Shown: one piece after another, positions 3,960 to 24,408 of the stretch | How the letters are laid out: the number at the start of each line of letters is the position of its first letter | Position numbering within the stretch: the first letter of the stretch is position 1 | IMG/VR virus record: IMGVR_UViG_3300030419_004277 | Span: 1-59,880 of that record | Direction: 5' to 3' (one strand) | DNA: 59,880 nt | Source: a virus | The notes under the pieces: generated by a model | What the model saw: the letters and a program-made list of their open reading frames with translations, nothing else | Told to the model about the DNA's origin: nothing | The model's database searches: none | Translations under genes and position numbers: made by a program

Positions 3960-5930
3960 TTACTTCTGAAGAAACTTGTTATTCATAGTTCTGGCGACAT
4001 TCATCATATTAGTCGGGTCGATGAAAGAGGCATCTTTACCATACATCTGAGAAAAATTATCTTTTTCACTACCATAACCACTACTATCACTAATAAAGTA
4101 ACTCATAATTTTAATGCCATTGTTTTTCATCATTTTAACCATTCTTCTGGCGTGTTCATTGGCTCTATCACCAGAGTACCAAACATCTTCCTTACCTTTT
4201 TTTCCATTGACACAAAAATAAGGAGCGCCATCTGAATAGTTGATAAAGTAATTATCCTCACCATTAACACCACCTAACCACTTCTTCATAATAGCTTCAT
4301 AACATAGTGACTCAGGCGTGACACCAGTAACTCTAAGTGTTTTCCACAGAGTTTTGATTTTTGATAACTTATCTTTTTTACTATTGTAAACTATCACTAC
4401 AACTGGCTTATTATTGTTAGTATATCTAACATCAACAGTAACACTAATATTACCAGCCATATCAGCAGCCTTAGACATCGCAACAGCAGAGGTAATGGCT
4501 TTTTCAAACTTTCTACCACTCATAGAGCCAGAACCATCAATCGACAAGTGTAAGTTAGCTTTGTTATATCTTTCTTTTTGAATTTGTGAAAAGACATTTT
4601 CATTACCAAAACCCAACTCAGAGATTAATCTCTTATTGATTTTACCAGTATTTTGTCTAGTAAAAATCAAATCTTTCTCTTCACCACGAATCTTAAGTTT
4701 TCTACCTAGAATCGCACCAAGTCTGAAACCTTCGTTAATCGCATCAACCATTTTCTTTCCATCACTCCAATATGAAGTGCCATCGTAATAATGGTCATCA
4801 AGAGAACGAAAGAAAGGAAAAGCACCACTCTCAATAAGTTCTTTGGTTAGTGATGGAATAACAACAGTTCCTACTTTACCAATTCTACTATCACCTACTT
4901 CAACCACCTCAGTATTTGAGTTAGACAAGGCATTGACAACTGACTGGTCTGCTTTAGTTAGTTTGGTTTTTCTAGTCTGACCATCCAAAAACTTCTGTTG
5001 GTCATCAAACATTTTTTGAATTTGATTTTGTTGTCTATCCGATAATTTCTTTCCATTATTTTGGTCATCACTTGAAGAAGTGTCATCTCCAGCAGAGTCA
5101 TCGTTATCCGAACCAGCACCAGGACTTGAGTCACCATCACTCTGATTTTCGCCATCTTCTGTATTTTCGGAGTTCTCATCATTACCCTCACCATTACCAG
5201 GAGCACTATCAATAATACCGAAAACAACCTCACACACAGACTTTGCCAACTCAATCGCATCATCTGTAGATTTTAATCTTGAAATATTTTTCATATCAAT
5301 TAAACGATAAATGTCAAGTAATCTTGGTAGAGCACCAAAATCAGTTTCTTCATTAGTGAAGTTGATGATACGAAACATATAAGAATCTAAGTCCAAGTCA
5401 CGATACATATCTGAAGCAAGACCTAAAGCAACTTTCTTACCATTGAAATACTTGTTATAAAGACTATGGTAGTAACCCTTGTAACCAGGTGAATTTCTGA
5501 AAACAATGTTGTCTACTCTTCTATCTTCAATGTAATTAATCATTCCACGAAAGAATTCTCTTTTTGAGGAGTCTAATTCATACTCCCTAATTTTACTATA
5601 ATTACGGGCATCACCAAAAGCATTAAAATCAGAGTAGGCTATGTGACTACCCTCGTGAAGAGCCAGACCAACTACATAGTCAAAATTCTTCTCATTGACA
5701 TTAGCACCGATAGTAACAGATTTACCATCAGTATAACTATCTCCACGAGTAGGAAACTTAACAGGAATATTTTGACCACTTACGATACGAACAAAATTAC
5801 CGATTGCCCTTTTGTGACCGGCAAGAGCAACATGGTCTTTACCTTTTTTTACTGGCTTGTCATCGGATAACAAGTCATCAACCAAACTTGTCCTACGACT
5901 ATCAAACCAAAAATCCGAATATTTACTCAC
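3960..5930 (-). CDS. VWA-domain protein with HExxH motif (CobT/VWA-peptidase-like)
   Basis: A 656-residue protein with two recognisable parts. Near residue 92 is HEGSH, a zinc-type HExxH motif in a region that looks like the metallopeptidase-like half of phage VWA proteins. Residues about 235-300 form a low-complexity acidic Asn/Asp/Ser/Glu linker. From about 455 there is a von Willebrand A domain with the metal-binding DGSGSMSG (MIDAS) motif. Related large-phage proteins are often annotated CobT-like or VWA peptidase, and they may work with AAA ATPases; none is adjacent here. The GTG start has GGAG upstream and follows the promoter at 5961-5989. Cobalt chelation is unlikely without other cobalamin genes. 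The true substrate is unknown. Confidence 0.8.
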   Translation of the reverse strand: MSKYSDFWFDSRRTSLVDDLLSDDKPVKKGKDHVALAGHKRAIGNFVRIVSGQNIPVKFPTRGDSYTDGKSVTIGANVNEKNFDYVVGLALHEGSHIAYSDFNAFGDARNYSKIREYELDSSKREFFRGMINYIEDRRVDNIVFRNSPGYKGYYHSLYNKYFNGKKVALGLASDMYRDLDLDSYMFRIINFTNEETDFGALPRLLDIYRLIDMKNISRLKSTDDAIELAKSVCEVVFGIIDSAPGNGEGNDENSENTEDGENQSDGDSSPGAGSDNDDSAGDDTSSSDDQNNGKKLSDRQQNQIQKMFDDQQKFLDGQTRKTKLTKADQSVVNALSNSNTEVVEVGDSRIGKVGTVVIPSLTKELIESGAFPFFRSLDDHYYDGTSYWSDGKKMVDAINEGFRLGAILGRKLKIRGEEKDLIFTRQNTGKINKRLISELGFGNENVFSQIQKERYNKANLHLSIDGSGSMSGRKFEKAITSAVAMSKAADMAGNISVTVDVRYTNNNKPVVVIVYNSKKDKLSKIKTLWKTLRVTGVTPESLCYEAIMKKWLGGVNGEDNYFINYSDGAPYFCVNGKKGKEDVWYSGDRANEHARRMVKMMKNNGIKIMSYFISDSSGYGSEKDNFSQMYGKDASFIDPTNMMNVARTMNNKFLQK

Positions 5931-7300: not shown

Positions 7301-7369
7301 CTACCTCCATCCATTTCTAATCTGTAAAATTAATATTAATAATATTGCTCCTAAGAATAAATATGTCAT
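7301..7369 (-). CDS. 22-residue single-span membrane micropeptide
   Basis: The ATG overlaps the TGA stop of the methyltransferase gene (ATGA). The peptide is one hydrophobic helix (MTYLFLGAILLILILQIRNG) with a basic tail. It resembles the micropeptide at 1338-1421 in layout. Function unknown. Confidence 0.45.
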   Translation of the reverse strand: MTYLFLGAILLILILQIRNGWR

Positions 7370-8589
7370 TTCTTCTCCCATATCCAAATTGGTTCACAAA
7401 ATCTCTTATCTTTATTTTCCTCAACAAATTTCATGGTTTTATCTTTAAACTGTATAGTGTCTTTTGCAGTTCCAGCACCACCACTATTAGGTCTTTTAGC
7501 CATTTCCATACCAATACAACCTCTGTATTCCATATCTCTGTACTCATCAAGAAATTCATTCATAGGATCACATATTTTTAACCAACTAGCACCCTTAGAT
7601 ATTTTCGCATTGACATCAGATATATTGACACACAACTTACCACCAGATTTTAATGTTGGTATCATACTATCAAGAGATTTCTGTAGAAACTGATAATTCC
7701 AACTATCTATGTCTTTATACCTAACCCAACTTTGATTGTCATCGTTACCATATCTTTCTATATTAAAATACGGTGGTGATGTGAATATAATATCAAAGGT
7801 ATCATCATACTCACTAAAGTCAAAGTCTTCAGCAGCCTCACAATAAAACTTAGTCTTCTTTTCTTTTTCAAAAAATGTTAAGTGATTATCGTAATATCTG
7901 GCTTGCCGTTCATAGATGGGATGATTTTCTTTTCTTGGATCTAATCCAACATATAATTCGGTGTTCATACTGGCATAAAATCCAGCCAATCTATCACCCC
8001 AACCCATTGAAAAATCCAACACATTCTTTACATTGTAGTAATCATACATAGCCTTTGCCACATTTGGTTTAAACTGACTACAAATATACTTACGAAGTCC
8101 AATCATAGTTCTCAGTATAGACCTATCTATTTTACTCAACTTCAATGAATACGCGGCACCCATTAAACTTTTCATAAAGTCAAATGTTTCCCATGTTCTT
8201 TTAGGACCTGGATAAGAACTTGATTCAACTGACCAACGATTCTCTTGTTGGAAATAATTACTAGCTTTATTACCGATGTTATTTCTAGCAAAATACCATT
8301 GTGAACCTTTATAATGTAAAGGGTAATCATAACCCTCTTCACTTCTAGCAAACCACTCTCCCTCTTTCAGAATATCGTAAACCCAAGTCCCTTTTAACTT
8401 GTTGAAATCCTTACGACAATCTTCTTCGGTCATCTCCATAGTCGGCATCGGATAAGTCATAGCGACTTTTGCCAGAGATTCTTTTACATCATCTTTATCA
8501 AATGTATCTTTGATATGAGTCCATTCTTTTTCATCGATGTGAAGATATGGTTCTTGGTTCTTAAACTTGTCAAAATAGTCAAGATACAT
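7366..8589 (-). CDS. DNA adenine-N6/cytosine-N4-type methyltransferase
   Basis: A 407-residue SAM-dependent methyltransferase. The SAM-binding motif I is VLDFSMGWGDRLAGF near residue 194. The catalytic motif is TSPPYF near 271, the (T/S)PPY form typical of amino-methyltransferases of DNA. The N-terminal 150 residues, rich in Trp and Tyr, probably hold target recognition. It belongs to the same family as the protein at 13273-14877. No restriction enzyme is adjacent, so self-protection or epigenetic modification of phage DNA is the likely role. Confidence 0.8.
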   Translation of the reverse strand: MYLDYFDKFKNQEPYLHIDEKEWTHIKDTFDKDDVKESLAKVAMTYPMPTMEMTEEDCRKDFNKLKGTWVYDILKEGEWFARSEEGYDYPLHYKGSQWYFARNNIGNKASNYFQQENRWSVESSSYPGPKRTWETFDFMKSLMGAAYSLKLSKIDRSILRTMIGLRKYICSQFKPNVAKAMYDYYNVKNVLDFSMGWGDRLAGFYASMNTELYVGLDPRKENHPIYERQARYYDNHLTFFEKEKKTKFYCEAAEDFDFSEYDDTFDIIFTSPPYFNIERYGNDDNQSWVRYKDIDSWNYQFLQKSLDSMIPTLKSGGKLCVNISDVNAKISKGASWLKICDPMNEFLDEYRDMEYRGCIGMEMAKRPNSGGAGTAKDTIQFKDKTMKFVEENKDKRFCEPIWIWEKK

Positions 8590-12801: not shown

Positions 12802-13273
12802 ATCCCTCGTAGTGTGGTTTTTGCTCTAGTAAATATACTTTACCTTTAACTTGTTTTGTCTTTCCCCACTCTATGTCACTAACAACCCTAAATCCATAGT
12901 TTTCATAAAAAGCCCTAGCTCTATCATTCTCTGAACGAACCGAAAGTAAAACATCCCTCTCAAAGTTACCATCATTAATAAACTTCTCAAAAACTTTTTT
13001 AGCACTTCCATTACCTTGGTCACGAGCAGCAATTTGGTGTAATATACAATCACCCTTTTGTGCTTGATATTCACCGACTTTTTGTTTTCTTTTATATCGA
13101 TTCCAAGTTATCAAAACTCCATCTTCCCAAACGACATTTTTACTATCAATCATTCTTTTTATTTTATCTCCACGAATGTGTGGAAAGTAGGCTTTGTGTA
13201 ACTTGAATACATCCATTATTTGGTTGTAATCATCCTCTGTGGCGTGACTTAAAACTTTATGTATTCTATCCAT
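12788..13273 (-). CDS. GNAT-family N-acetyltransferase
   Basis: 161 residues with the acetyl-CoA-binding motif A (RDQGNGSAKKVFEKF at about 91-105) and the motif B segment SENDRARAFYENYGFR. It would transfer an acetyl group to an amine on a protein, antibiotic or nucleotide; the target cannot be predicted. Its stop and the start of the small membrane gene overlap, and it begins exactly where the methyltransferase ends. Confidence 0.85.
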   Translation of the reverse strand: MDRIHKVLSHATEDDYNQIMDVFKLHKAYFPHIRGDKIKRMIDSKNVVWEDGVLITWNRYKRKQKVGEYQAQKGDCILHQIAARDQGNGSAKKVFEKFINDGNFERDVLLSVRSENDRARAFYENYGFRVVSDIEWGKTKQVKGKVYLLEQKPHYEGYEYK

Positions 13274-14877
13274 TATGGTTTGTGAAAAATAAATATTGGT
13301 TCATATTTTAGTGTTACTCCATCTACATCAACTTTGTTTTTTACATTTGACTGGTCAACACCTATCATAGATGCCATAATCATTTTTAACTTACCTTTAT
13401 ACTGACCACCAAGTGCTTCTATAATATCAATAGAATCTTGCTCAAGTGGATGAAAATTATTTCCACTTAACTTTATGTCGGCGATATTCCAAAGTAAATA
13501 TCTATCACTTTTTAGACTCTCGTAAGCATTTGTTAATGTTGGTTTTAGGAAGTTATCTCTCCAATCGTGATACATCGGATAAGCCTTAAATGATTGTTCG
13601 TCATCATCAGAATATTGTTCTCTATCAAAATAAGGTGGTGAAGTAAATACCATATCTAACTTACCTTTGTATTGTTGAAAGTCAGGATGGTCACCAATAT
13701 GTTCAGAACCTAACTGAAAATAATGATAGGTATTCTTTGACTCTTCCCAAAATGGATTTGTTTCTAAACCGTGTTCATTAAAAAAGTCAGCAACATATTC
13801 GTATCTTGACTTATCTATCTCGTCTATCCAATTATCTGTATTCGGGTCTGTTCCAATATAATGTATTTTTTTCTTGGAAGCCATAGCACCAAGAATCCTA
13901 CCACCCCAACCACTTGAAGGATCGTAAATGTTAAGCGGTTCATCTTGTTCAATGTGGTCTGTATATTTTTCATACAGAAGTCTTGCTGTAAGTGGTGGAA
14001 AATTAACTGCTGGTTGTGAGTTCAAACTCAATCTAAATATCTGAAATGCTTTTGGAAACAATCTAGTCTTCAAATCATAATACCTAATCATGAAAACATT
14101 TTTTCTAACATTACCACCTTTTGTGGATACAGTATCAGTTAGGTCTTCCACAGATAATTTTGTTTTCAGAGTAGGGCACCATAAGTTAGTCACCATCTCA
14201 TCTGTGATTAATCCTTTGTCATAACCCAATTTTATTTCATCAGCATTTAATGTGACATAATGTTTAAGATATTTTTCTTGATGTGACTTAGCAATCCACA
14301 ACCTATGATTCTTAAACTTTAATTTGTTGTCTCGATAATATTCTAACCAAGTTAAGGCATCTTCTCCATTCCAATAAGGCAATTTATTCTTTGTATTTTC
14401 TTTCCTATCTAATGAAATAGACTTACTAAAAGTATACATTGAATCTCTACGAAGACCTCTTCTCATAGCTTTATAAAATAAATCTTTATTTACATCCTCT
14501 TTTATTCTGTCATAAATAGAATTTAATCCATCTCCCATATCTCCGATACGAGTCTTTAACATTGTAGGAAAGAACTGATTTACACCATTCGCAAACTTAT
14601 TAAAGTTTCTGATTACATTTCTTTGTCCATCATCAGCTTTTTCTATAAAGCCGTGTATGTCATATTCTCTCAGTTTTTTAAATGACTTAATTATGTCCTC
14701 GATTGATTGACCAACCATAGGAGGCGTTCCTCGCTCATCCCAATCTTCAATTATATATTGACGAACTTGTTCTATCCAATCATCAAGCTGCTCATCAGTT
14801 TTACAAAATAACTCATGATATGTAATATTGATTTTTGAATCTAAAATACCACTCTTTTCGTAGTAGTATTTATTCAC
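13273..14877 (-). CDS. Second DNA amino-methyltransferase
   Basis: A 534-residue relative of the enzyme at 7366-8589, with motif I YDPSSGWGGRILGA near 322 and catalytic TSPPYF near 413, followed by a matching segment with E-QYSDDDEQSF. The N-terminal 300 residues are longer and probably hold a different target-recognition region. Two differing N-termini on a shared core suggest two sequence specificities. The GTG start overlaps the end of the 57-residue gene. Confidence 0.8.
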   Translation of the reverse strand: MNKYYYEKSGILDSKINITYHELFCKTDEQLDDWIEQVRQYIIEDWDERGTPPMVGQSIEDIIKSFKKLREYDIHGFIEKADDGQRNVIRNFNKFANGVNQFFPTMLKTRIGDMGDGLNSIYDRIKEDVNKDLFYKAMRRGLRRDSMYTFSKSISLDRKENTKNKLPYWNGEDALTWLEYYRDNKLKFKNHRLWIAKSHQEKYLKHYVTLNADEIKLGYDKGLITDEMVTNLWCPTLKTKLSVEDLTDTVSTKGGNVRKNVFMIRYYDLKTRLFPKAFQIFRLSLNSQPAVNFPPLTARLLYEKYTDHIEQDEPLNIYDPSSGWGGRILGAMASKKKIHYIGTDPNTDNWIDEIDKSRYEYVADFFNEHGLETNPFWEESKNTYHYFQLGSEHIGDHPDFQQYKGKLDMVFTSPPYFDREQYSDDDEQSFKAYPMYHDWRDNFLKPTLTNAYESLKSDRYLLWNIADIKLSGNNFHPLEQDSIDIIEALGGQYKGKLKMIMASMIGVDQSNVKNKVDVDGVTLKYEPIFIFHKP

Positions 14878-17711: not shown

Positions 17712-17813
17712 TCATCGTCTTTTTTTGAAATATACTTTTGGTGGTCCTACTCTTTTTTTTAATTCTAATAATGTCGTTTTTTTGGACATTTTACCTTTTT
17801 GTTTTTTTGTCAT
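17712..17813 (-). CDS. 33-residue basic peptide coupled to the SelW gene
   Basis: The ATG overlaps the TGA stop of the SelW gene (ATGA). The peptide is lysine-rich (MTKKQKGKMSKKTTLLELKK) and ends in FKKRR. The junction is typical for real genes in this genome, but such a low-complexity peptide could be fortuitous. Confidence 0.4.
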   Translation of the reverse strand: MTKKQKGKMSKKTTLLELKKRVGPPKVYFKKRR

Positions 17814-18043
17814 GTTACTTTTTGATAGCCCTCTAATAAATCCTCTATTTCATTTTTAGTTGGAAACCTACCTAAATCTTTTTTACTAAAAATTAAGCTG
17901 TTATTTAGTGTGACTTCGAATACACCACCAGAACTTTCAATCATTTTGGCTTTAATACCAAATTGTTTTTTTAGTGATTCTCTCAAACTGAGAGCTCTAG
18001 GTTCATAGTTTCACATCATACAATATTCAATTGTAATGTCCAT
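17810..18043 (-). CDS. SelW/Rdx-family selenoprotein (in-frame TGA as Sec)
   Basis: Reading through one TGA (18011-18013) gives a complete 77-residue Rdx-family protein: MDITIEYCMMUNYEPRA, then ESSGGVFEVTLNN and LIFSKKDLGRFPT. Selenoprotein W and relatives have CxxC or CxxU near residue 10, followed by Y-PRA, G-FEV and SK--GRFP; all are here. The TGA falls exactly at U (residue 11). The ATG has GGAG 6 nt upstream. The protein continues in the same frame to its TGA stop at 17810. A SECIS-like hairpin follows the Sec codon (17980-17994). The family is a thioredoxin-like thiol-selenol redox protein. Host or phage Sec machinery is needed to make it. Confidence 0.85.
17980..17994 (-). promoter_or_regulatory. 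Bacterial SECIS-like hairpin of the SelW gene
   Basis: On the mRNA, CTCTCA pairs with TGAGAG (6 bp) around the loop GTT. The loop begins 22 nt after the TGA. Bacterial SECIS elements have a short stem with a G at the start of the apical loop, about 16-37 nt past UGA. The hairpin is within coding sequence, as expected. Confidence 0.7.
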
Positions 18044-18056
18044 TGTGTCTCCTATG

Positions 18057-23182: not shown

Positions 23183-24304
23183 TTACTTTAATATTGTTAT
23201 CTTTACAGCATCATTATCATTTATGATGTAATAAATACCAGCAGGTAAATTGCCTGTATTCCAAACATATTTACCCTCTAAGTCGAATTGTTTTATTAAT
23301 CTACCAGTAATATCATAAATAATTGTATAGCCGTTGCCAAAAATACTCACATTATTATTTGATGGGTTAGGAAAAGCAATAACTTTAGATTCACTCAATA
23401 ATGAGTATTGTTTTGTTAACCGCTCAAATTCTGATGGTGATACTATTGATTCAAGGTATCTAATAGCTCGTTGTTGATTTCCACCTATAACCTGTTGTAA
23501 TAAAAAAATAACATCTAAAACATTTATTGTACCGTCATCATTAATATCCGCACTTTCTATTGAACACTCATTATTAGCATAACCTAACACTAAATCTACT
23601 AACATCAATATGTCAAATAAATTAACAAAATTATCACCATTTAAGTTACCTACATAAAAAGAAATGTTATCACAAGGATCACAATAATCACCAATGCCGT
23701 CTAAATCATAATCCTCTTGGTTAGGATTGTATTCCTCTACACAATTATCAACATCATCTAATACACCATCCTCATCCATATCTAATATTAGCGTAGATAA
23801 ACCTGTTTCTATTGCCGTAATTATAGCACTTTGATTAAAACCAGATTGGGAATATATAACTTGACCAGCACCATTAATAACGATATTATGTGGCACATAT
23901 CCAACACCAAATAAAGAATAGATATTACTACCATTATTATCATCTAAAACCGGTAATGTTTGACCAAATGATGTCGCCCATCCCTCACAACTGTAAGGTT
24001 GATTCCAATCCATACCTGCTGTAACTACTTCCACTCTTTGTCCTAAATACTCTTGATAAATATACTCAATGATCGGAGCCTCCGATTGACAAGGTCCTCA
24101 CCAAGTTGCGAATGAAGCTATGAATACAACTTTGTTATGTCCAACAGAATCATAAGACCAATAACCATCGCCGTTGTAACATATTTCCGCACCAAAATCT
24201 TCTACAAAATCACCCTCAACATATGTTTGTGCTAAAACTAAATCTGATAAACCAGAAAACAAAATGAACCCAATCATCCAATATAATATTTTTTTGATTA
24301 TCAA
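23183..24304 (-). CDS. Secreted TlpA-like selenothioredoxin with dockerin and T9SS sorting domain
   Basis: A single 373-codon frame interrupted by one in-frame TGA at 24098-24100. Signal peptide at 1-26. Thioredoxin domain at about 27-165: VVFIASFATWUGPCQSEAPI, where the TGA replaces the first Cys of WCGPC (residue 69), and the cis-Pro in GYVPHNIVING (138). Thrombospondin-3-like calcium repeats at 174-213 (DMDEDGVLDDVDNC). Two dockerin-type calcium loops at about 218-275 (NGDNFVNLFDI, NDDGTINVLDV). Type IX sorting domain at 307-373 (FPNPSNNNVSIFGNG, YDITGRLIK, LPAGIYYI). The TTG start has AAGGAG at a good distance. A SECIS-like hairpin follows. It should be exported and attached or released at the outer surface. 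Confidence 0.85.
24072..24086 (-). promoter_or_regulatory. Bacterial SECIS-like hairpin of the thioredoxin gene
   Basis: ATCGGA pairs with TCCGAT around loop GGC. The loop starts 17 nt after the TGA codon and begins with G. An alternative fold adds TCAAT/ATTGA below with a bulge. The position matches bacterial SECIS elements. Confidence 0.65.
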
Positions 24305-24408
24305 AATATTCTCCTTATTAAATTAATTAACAGATACCAAAGTGTAAATGAAGTCGTGGGTAACAAAATTACCCAAACAAATAAATTAAACCAGTCTATT
24401 TTTCTCAC
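24301..24408 (-). CDS. Small membrane protein (35 aa)
   Basis: A GTG start overlaps the deformylase TGA. Two hydrophobic stretches (DWFNLFVWVILLP and FTLWYLLINLI) make it a one- or two-span peptide. Its stop overlaps the TTG start of the thioredoxin gene. The coupling on both sides supports translation. Confidence 0.5.
   Translation of the reverse strand: MRKIDWFNLFVWVILLPTTSFTLWYLLINLIRRIF

What the first reader, a model, noticed from the sequence alone, without database searches (positions are those of the whole stretch)
17810..18043. Phage-borne SelW-like selenoprotein hidden by an in-frame TGA
A complete Rdx-family protein appears only when the TGA at 18011-18013 is read as an amino acid. 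The TGA is at the U of CxxU (YCMMU), the known selenocysteine site. The rest (Y-PRA, GGVFEV, SKKDLGRFP) is intact, the ATG has GGAG before it, and a SECIS-like hairpin follows 22 nt later. Selenoproteins carried by phages are rarely reported, and standard gene callers miss this gene.
Basis: partly seen in the sequence, partly recalled or inferred. Interest (0 to 1): 0.93.

Follow-up and report, generated by a model that had tools for sequence, protein, structure and literature searches.

The report
Selenocysteine proteins encoded by marine phages
A bacterial virus carries a small redox-protein gene whose apparent stop codon is almost certainly read as the rare amino acid selenocysteine; related phages keep the same stop codon and RNA signal, and this phage has a second gene of the same kind, so some phages appear to draw on their host's selenium machinery.

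Summary
On the minus strand (18043-17810) an intact 77-residue Rdx/SelW protein exists only if the TGA at 18011-18013 is read through (Pfam Rdx 1.1e-18; model matches solved SelW-family structures).

It is not a sequencing error. Twenty-six related viral loci cover the codon and all have TGA, none Cys; an exact Cys version of the motif is absent from 2.9 million viral contigs. Twenty distinct viral genes carry a 6-bp hairpin with a G-first triloop at a fixed distance from the UGA. Its stem is kept through two-sided compensatory changes (0/500 shuffles as good). Four SelW-carrying contigs encode a T4-type capsid, so the carriers are tailed phages. None of 20 viral records searched (most are fragments) encodes SelB, SelD or tRNA-Sec, so host machinery is presumably borrowed.

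The window also holds a second, unreported selenoprotein gene (24304-23183): a secreted UGPC thioredoxin-like protein with a type IX secretion tail. Its nearest relatives are TGA-containing genes of Neomarinimicrobiota, the likely host. Seventeen other viral contigs carry WUGPC thioredoxins.

No phage selenoprotein was found in the literature searched. The family and recoding mechanism are known; the setting is new. Sec insertion and the protein's role are inferred, not measured.

The parts
17810..18043 (-). SelW-like (Rdx family) selenoprotein gene, 77 residues with Sec11, ATG start, TGA stop
   Evidence: Pfam Rdx 67.7 bits, E 1.1e-18, against 38.8 bits for the truncated TTG ORF; Foldseek to SelW-family structures
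18011..18013 (-). In-frame UGA at the U of CxxU, read as selenocysteine (inferred)
   Evidence: TGA in 26/26 viral loci covering the codon; exact-Cys motif absent from viral contigs
17980..17994 (-). SECIS hairpin in the coding region: CUCUCA-GUU-UGAGAG, loop beginning 22 nt after the UGA
   Evidence: 97.5% of cells paired in 20 distinct viral sequences, 4 pairs with changes on both sides, covariation 0.435 against 0.155 shuffled (0/500)
18049..18053 (-). AGGAG ribosome-binding site, 5 nt before the ATG
   Evidence: read directly
23183..24304 (-). Second selenoprotein gene: signal peptide, TlpA/AhpC-TSA-like domain with UGPC, TSP3 repeat, dockerin, type IX secretion (Por_Secre_tail) C-terminus; TTG start, 373 residues
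   Evidence: (AhpC-TSA 1.2e-8 across the TGA; neither half alone hits it)
24098..24100 (-). In-frame UGA at the U of UGPC in the second gene
   Evidence: kept in 4 viral relatives plus the G016 paralogue and in the 14 best Neomarinimicrobiota matches
24072..24086 (-). SECIS-like hairpin of the second gene: AUCGGA-GGC-UCCGAU
   Evidence: same register in 23 of 24 TGA genes (4-6 of 6 pairs), with C-G to U-A compensation in four; 0, 1 and 3 of 6 pairs in three Cys homologues
24311..24315 (-). AGGAG ribosome-binding site, 6 nt before the TTG start of the second gene
   Evidence: read directly

Best explanation
This is a real phage-encoded selenoprotein gene of the bacterial SelW-like (Rdx) family. 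During infection the host's SelB, carrying Sec-tRNA(Sec), would recognise the hairpin just downstream of the UGA and insert selenocysteine at position 11, giving a 77-residue thioredoxin-fold protein with a CxxU redox centre. The most likely job is thiol/selenol redox chemistry in the infected cell, comparable with the glutaredoxins and thioredoxins many phages carry: protection from oxidative stress, or electron supply to nucleotide-synthesis enzymes. The phage belongs to a group of T4-like tailed phages and probably infects Neomarinimicrobiota (SAR406), which have the Sec machinery. Shown here: an intact frame across the UGA, conservation of the UGA, a covarying SECIS hairpin, the Rdx fold (predicted), viral context, and no Sec machinery detected in the viral records. 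Inferred: actual Sec insertion, host identity, role in infection.
For: Frame and family; structure model pLDDT 87, best PDB matches all SelW/Rdx family, TM 0.80-0.89 for the crystal structures; profile match to the bacterial SelW-related family 2.5e-14 and to mouse SelW 1.7e-6. Not an error: an independent contig 96% identical over 6,166 bp keeps the TGA, as do 26/26 viral loci at 44-97% protein identity. Exact-Cys motif: 0 viral hits. SECIS; L186/L191 keep the stem with U-A replaced by G-C although the residue changes from Leu to Arg, and L035 has a wholly different stem at the same place. Not a general recoding: 25 of 82 minus-strand ORFs of 70 aa or more end in TGA and 307 TGG Trp codons are used. 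Viral context: T4-type major capsid at E about 1e-77 in four SelW-carrying records; terminase in three of these. Second Sec gene in the same phage; record G016, with a T4-type capsid, also carries both kinds of Sec gene. Host: the closest relatives of the second gene are Neomarinimicrobiota genes, best 55% identity, E 2.9e-105, the top 14 with one or more TGA; the six such genomes tested encode SelB.
Against: No expression, proteomic or selenium-labelling data. A single-sequence fold of the hairpin is little better than shuffles. The SelW tree, only 79 columns, puts the phage genes next to Alphaproteobacteria (SH-aLRT 86, not strong), not next to the Neomarinimicrobiota SelW sequences sampled, so the SelW genes may have another bacterial source than the present host. 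The window itself shows no capsid or terminase gene. Most records are fragments, so missing sel genes are not proof of absence.
Confidence: 0.93

Rival explanations
1. Pseudogene or sequencing/assembly error: the TGA is an accidental stop and the gene is dead or misread.
For: Formally, any in-frame stop invites this reading; the window sequence alone could not exclude it.
Against: TGA kept in all 26 viral loci that cover it, down to 44% protein identity, in contigs of many sample series; frame intact on both sides in every one; hairpin covariation.
Confidence: 0.01
2. The UGA ends a 10-residue leader and the working protein is the downstream 58-aa ORF started at the internal TTG (17986).
For: The 58-aa ORF exists and still matches Rdx at 38.8 bits.
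Against: The TTG is not conserved (TTA in L167, L180, L186, L191; different in L035) and lies inside the hairpin; the upstream part is conserved, with Tyr7 and Cys8 invariant and the UGA at codon 11 in register; the truncated form loses the first strand and the whole CxxU centre.
Confidence: 0.03
3. UGA is read through as Trp, Cys or another standard residue by an altered code or suppressor tRNA of this phage.
For: Some phages use recoded stop codons (general knowledge).
Against: UGA is a normal stop in many window genes, including this one; TGG is common; no tRNA gene in the window; the UGA occurs at the redox positions of two selenoprotein-type motifs; a covarying SECIS hairpin would be unneeded.
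Confidence: 0.02
4. The Sec gene is real but cellular: the contig or its relatives are bacterial DNA misfiled as viral.
For: SelW-Sec genes are common in marine bacteria (PMC2398784); the window lacks capsid and terminase genes.
Against: T4-type capsid and terminase genes in SelW-carrying records; the window shares several otherwise uncharacterised proteins with record G016, which has the capsid gene; 19 of 21 phage SelW sequences form one cluster apart from the bacterial ones, and the label needs only 2 changes against 20 by chance; the window has PhoH-like, ThyX, RecB-like nuclease and UvdE-like genes and nearly all genes on one strand.
Confidence: 0.03

Closest known systems
Bacterial SelW-like selenoproteins (Rdx family, PF10262), the most abundant marine selenoprotein family (PMC2398784: 427 Sec and 56 Cys genes in GOS; PMC9402790)
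   Same: Same fold, CxxU centre, conserved motifs and in-gene SECIS at a like distance.
   Different: Encoded by tailed phages; 19 of 21 form a separate sequence cluster; only Sec forms, no Cys form, found in viruses.
Bacterial SECIS / SelB recoding as in E. coli fdhF (general knowledge)
   Same: Short hairpin directly downstream of the UGA inside the coding region, G and U in the apical loop.
   Different: No machinery detected in the viral records, so it presumably acts with the host's SelB and tRNA-Sec.
Secreted Sec-containing TlpA-like proteins of Neomarinimicrobiota (found here)
   Same: Up to 55% identity, UGA at the same place, same CGGAGGCUCCG hairpin, thioredoxin-like plus dockerin regions aligned.
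   Different: The second gene of this window is the phage copy.
tRNA-Sec genes of Basilisk-like Bacillus phages (PMC6145125, described there as the first in phages)
   Same: A link between phages and selenocysteine.
   Different: Those phages were reported to carry the tRNA; here the reverse, selenoprotein genes without any tRNA-Sec found.
Poxvirus glutathione peroxidase selenoproteins (general knowledge)
   Same: A virus-encoded selenoprotein using host machinery.
   Different: Eukaryotic virus, eukaryotic SECIS in the 3' UTR, different protein family.

Membership tests
SelW-like / Rdx family (PF10262) | Profile match over the curated cut-off across the whole domain | tested here: met
   67.7 bits against cut-off 22.6, profile positions 2-72 of 74
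SelW-like / Rdx family (PF10262) | CxxC/CxxU redox motif after the first strand | tested here: met
   YCMMU; Y7, C8 and position 11 invariant in 17 viral sequences
SelW-like / Rdx family (PF10262) | Thioredoxin-like SelW fold | tested here: met
   predicted model pLDDT 87; the 23 PDB matches with E<=0.001 are all SelW/Rdx family chains
Bacterial selenoprotein genes | In-frame UGA at a position that is Cys/Sec in homologues, frame continuing to a normal stop | tested here: met
Bacterial selenoprotein genes | SECIS hairpin just after the UGA with G/U in the apical loop | tested here: met
   20 distinct viral sequences, compensatory changes, 0/500 shuffles; bacterial SelW genes have a like hairpin at the same place (by eye)
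Bacterial selenoprotein genes | Host with selA, selB, selC and selD | tested here: inconclusive
   SelB over the cut-off in all six Neomarinimicrobiota genomes tested; host assignment is inferred; selA, selC and selD not checked in the host
Bacterial selenoprotein genes | Selenocysteine present in the protein | not testable with these tools
   needs mass spectrometry or Se-75 labelling
T4-like tailed phages | Gp23-type major capsid protein and large terminase | tested here: inconclusive
   both present in related SelW-carrying records G002, G014 and G020, capsid also in G016; not in the 59.9-kb window fragment
Phage auxiliary metabolic gene | Cell-type metabolic gene carried by a virus and used in infection | tested here: inconclusive
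   carried by viruses; use in infection not testable here

The most novel reading that the evidence does not exclude
Some T4-like phages carry a standing selenoproteome: SelW, WUGPC thioredoxins in other viral contigs, and a selenoprotein exported by the host's type IX secretion system. Their infection would then depend on host selenium, and part of the marine SelW pool counted as bacterial would be viral. That selenium matters to infection is the unproven step.
Probability: 0.5. Interest if true: 0.92.

Novelty: new variant of a known kind. Interest (0 to 1): 0.83.

Why it matters
Selenocysteine is costly and needs a dedicated host pathway. A Cys version of the gene would work in any host, yet every viral relative found keeps Sec. 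That implies selection for selenium chemistry during infection and ties these phages to Sec-using hosts. Standard annotation truncates or splits such genes, so they go uncounted, and marine selenoprotein censuses may count phage genes as bacterial. It gives concrete, testable cases: two Sec genes in one phage, with a predicted host phylum.

Tried and rejected
Cultured-phage records (INPHARED) by tblastn: no match, so no isolate is available in that collection. tRNA-Sec matches in three large viral records scored below the family cut-off; the two loci examined coincide with ordinary tRNA-Cys and tRNA-Ala genes. Rfam gave nothing in the window. Energy of single hairpins is uninformative. The SelW tree is too short to fix the donor. 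Viral pattern hits SYCHCUNY*, YCDVUYYIPRA and similar and L216 look like chance matches without the domain. L218 has UGPC but only 1 of 6 pairs of the usual hairpin; an alternative CUGA/UCAG stem is possible, untested. Foldseek against viral models found no SelW-like viral structure at E <= 0.001. Searches failed on input rules; the script had a faulty filter and was repeated.

Full report
OBSERVATION. The finding lies on the minus strand. ATG (18043-18041), preceded by AGGAG, opens a frame that meets TGA at codon 11 (18013-18011) and runs on to a normal stop at 17812-17810. The read-through product MDITIEYCMMUNYEPRALSLRESLKKQFGIKAKMIESSGGVFEVTLNNSLIFSKKDLGRFPTKNEIEDLLEGYQKVT matches Pfam Rdx at 67.7 bits (E 1.1e-18); the TTG-started remnant that a gene caller could report scores 38.8 bits and lacks the CxxU centre.

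NOT AN ERROR. A contig from another sample series (L002) is 96% identical over 6,166 bp and keeps the TGA. A scan for YCxxU-x-Y-x-PRA with TGA in 2.9 million viral contigs returned 42 stretches, about half of them real SelW genes. A family search using two peptide patterns, one of them (FSKxxxxRFP) independent of the codon, returned 27 viral loci; the 26 that reach the codon all read TGA. The exact motif with Cys in place of the TGA gave no viral contig at all. The published background differs: in ocean metagenomes SelW has 427 Sec and 56 Cys genes (PMC2398784).

SECIS. In 20 distinct viral sequences a 6-bp stem with a G-first triloop (GUU, once GGU, once GUC) sits at the same place, loop beginning 22 nt after the UGA. 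Counted on the ungapped alignment, 97.5% of cells pair; four of six pairs show changes on both sides; 13 cells are changed on both sides against 2.3 by shuffling; covariation 0.435 against 0.155; no shuffle in 500 reaches these values except for the number of pairs (4/500); slid partners pair in at most 59% of cells. L186 and L191 keep the stem while the protein changes Leu to Arg, and L035 has an unrelated stem sequence. Bacterial SelW genes have a like hairpin in the same position with different sequence (by eye). Single-sequence energies are unremarkable, so the argument rests on covariation.

FOLD. AlphaFold with 17 window and locus sequences: pLDDT 87. The PDB matches with E <= 0.001 are all SelW/Rdx-family chains, including mouse SelW. 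A profile search of PDB sequences gives the same family.

THE CARRIERS ARE PHAGES. Four SelW-carrying records (77-216 kb) encode a T4-type Gp23 major capsid at E about 1e-77, and three of those a large terminase. The window is a 59.9-kb virus record without those genes, but it has PhoH-like, ThyX, UvdE-like, RecB-like nuclease and Hsp20 genes and shares otherwise uncharacterised proteins with G016, one of the capsid-bearing records. In a 138-row tree 19 of 21 phage SelW sequences fall together; the label needs 2 changes against 20 by chance.

MACHINERY. No SelB, SelD or tRNA-Sec over cut-off in 20 viral records, most of them fragments; the sub-threshold tRNA matches examined are ordinary tRNAs. 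UGA is otherwise a stop in this phage: 25 of 82 minus-strand ORFs of 70 aa or more end in it. The phage therefore probably relies on host machinery (inference).

A SECOND SEC GENE IN THE WINDOW. Scanning the window for in-frame TGAs next to Cys found one more strong case: TGA 24100-24098 joins a 68-codon signal-peptide segment to 304 codons, giving ...FIASFATWUGPCQSEAP..., then TSP3, dockerin and a Por_Secre_tail. AhpC-TSA matches at 1.2e-8 across the TGA and neither half alone does. Four viral relatives (64-92% identity) have the same TGA. Record G016, with the T4-type capsid, carries both a SelW-TGA gene and a paralogue reading FTSW-U-PSC, next to what look by eye like DNA polymerase and ribonucleotide reductase genes.

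HOST. Among 20 Sec-using bacterial genomes of many phyla, the second gene's best relatives were all Neomarinimicrobiota. In 199 genomes of that phylum 82 match at 1e-12, the best 55% identical (E 2.9e-105), and the 14 best matches contain TGA. Aligned at the Sec position, 19 loci read TGA and 15 Cys (the Cys set includes distant thioredoxins of other phyla). TGA genes carry the hairpin CGGAGGCUCCG or its compensated form UGGAGGCUCCA; three Cys homologues have it broken (0, 1 and 3 of 6 pairs). The six Neomarinimicrobiota genomes tested encode SelB over the cut-off. Type IX tails are typical of the Bacteroidota/FCB group (general knowledge), which agrees. Only six of 34 viral records searched show such a tail, so the other SelW phages may have other hosts. 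The sampling habitats of the contigs were not available; 'marine' is inferred from the host phylum and the literature.

WIDER. A scan for FxA[ST]WUGPC found 17 viral contigs with convincing thioredoxins read through TGA, most with a GAGC-AGGU-GCUC-type hairpin. None of the eight such records tested also holds SelW.

LITERATURE. Searches of the held library found no report of a selenoprotein gene in a bacteriophage. The nearest is tRNA-Sec in Basilisk-like Bacillus phages (PMC6145125). Most subscription papers and all bioRxiv preprints are outside the library, so priority is not proven.

FUNCTION. Redox chemistry by CxxU is the family expectation. A role in keeping nucleotide-synthesis or other enzymes reduced, or in oxidative stress during infection, is inference. 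The second protein would act outside the cytoplasm and be secreted by the host's type IX system (inference from its domains).

VERDICT. The finding stands and is larger than stated. Known family, known mechanism, new setting.

Noticed in passing
window 23183-24304 (-): Second selenoprotein gene in the same phage: secreted UGPC thioredoxin-like protein with dockerin and type IX secretion tail; gene callers would split it at TGA 24098-24100.
   Followed up: yes
L197-L213 (17 viral contigs): Thioredoxin genes with WUGPC read through a TGA, most with a hairpin downstream; a further viral selenoprotein kind, in contigs other than those with SelW.
   Followed up: partly
L269 (record G016, near 98.5 kb): A capsid-bearing T4-like record holds SelW-TGA and a UPSC secreted paralogue next to apparent DNA polymerase and ribonucleotide reductase genes.
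   Followed up: partly
L035, reverse strand near 460: Very divergent SelW-like reading frame (YCVLUNYKPRA) with an unrelated stem (AGAAA-GUC-UUUCU) at the same SECIS position and an unusual C-terminus.
   Followed up: no
L218 near 5002-5025: Viral UGPC gene whose hairpin does not fit the usual register (1 of 6 pairs); may use another stem.
   Followed up: no
window about 26500-56800 (-): Long block of apparent sugar-nucleotide, glycosyltransferase, epimerase and transketolase-like genes, about half of the fragment, suggesting a surface glycan or modification cassette (judged by eye).
   Followed up: no
window 7366-8589 and 13273-14877 (-): Two related methyltransferase-like proteins (phrog_12517/phrog_498).
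   Followed up: no
L255 (Neomarinimicrobiota): Two tandem TGA codons at the redox site (W-U-U-P-C) with an intact hairpin.
   Followed up: no
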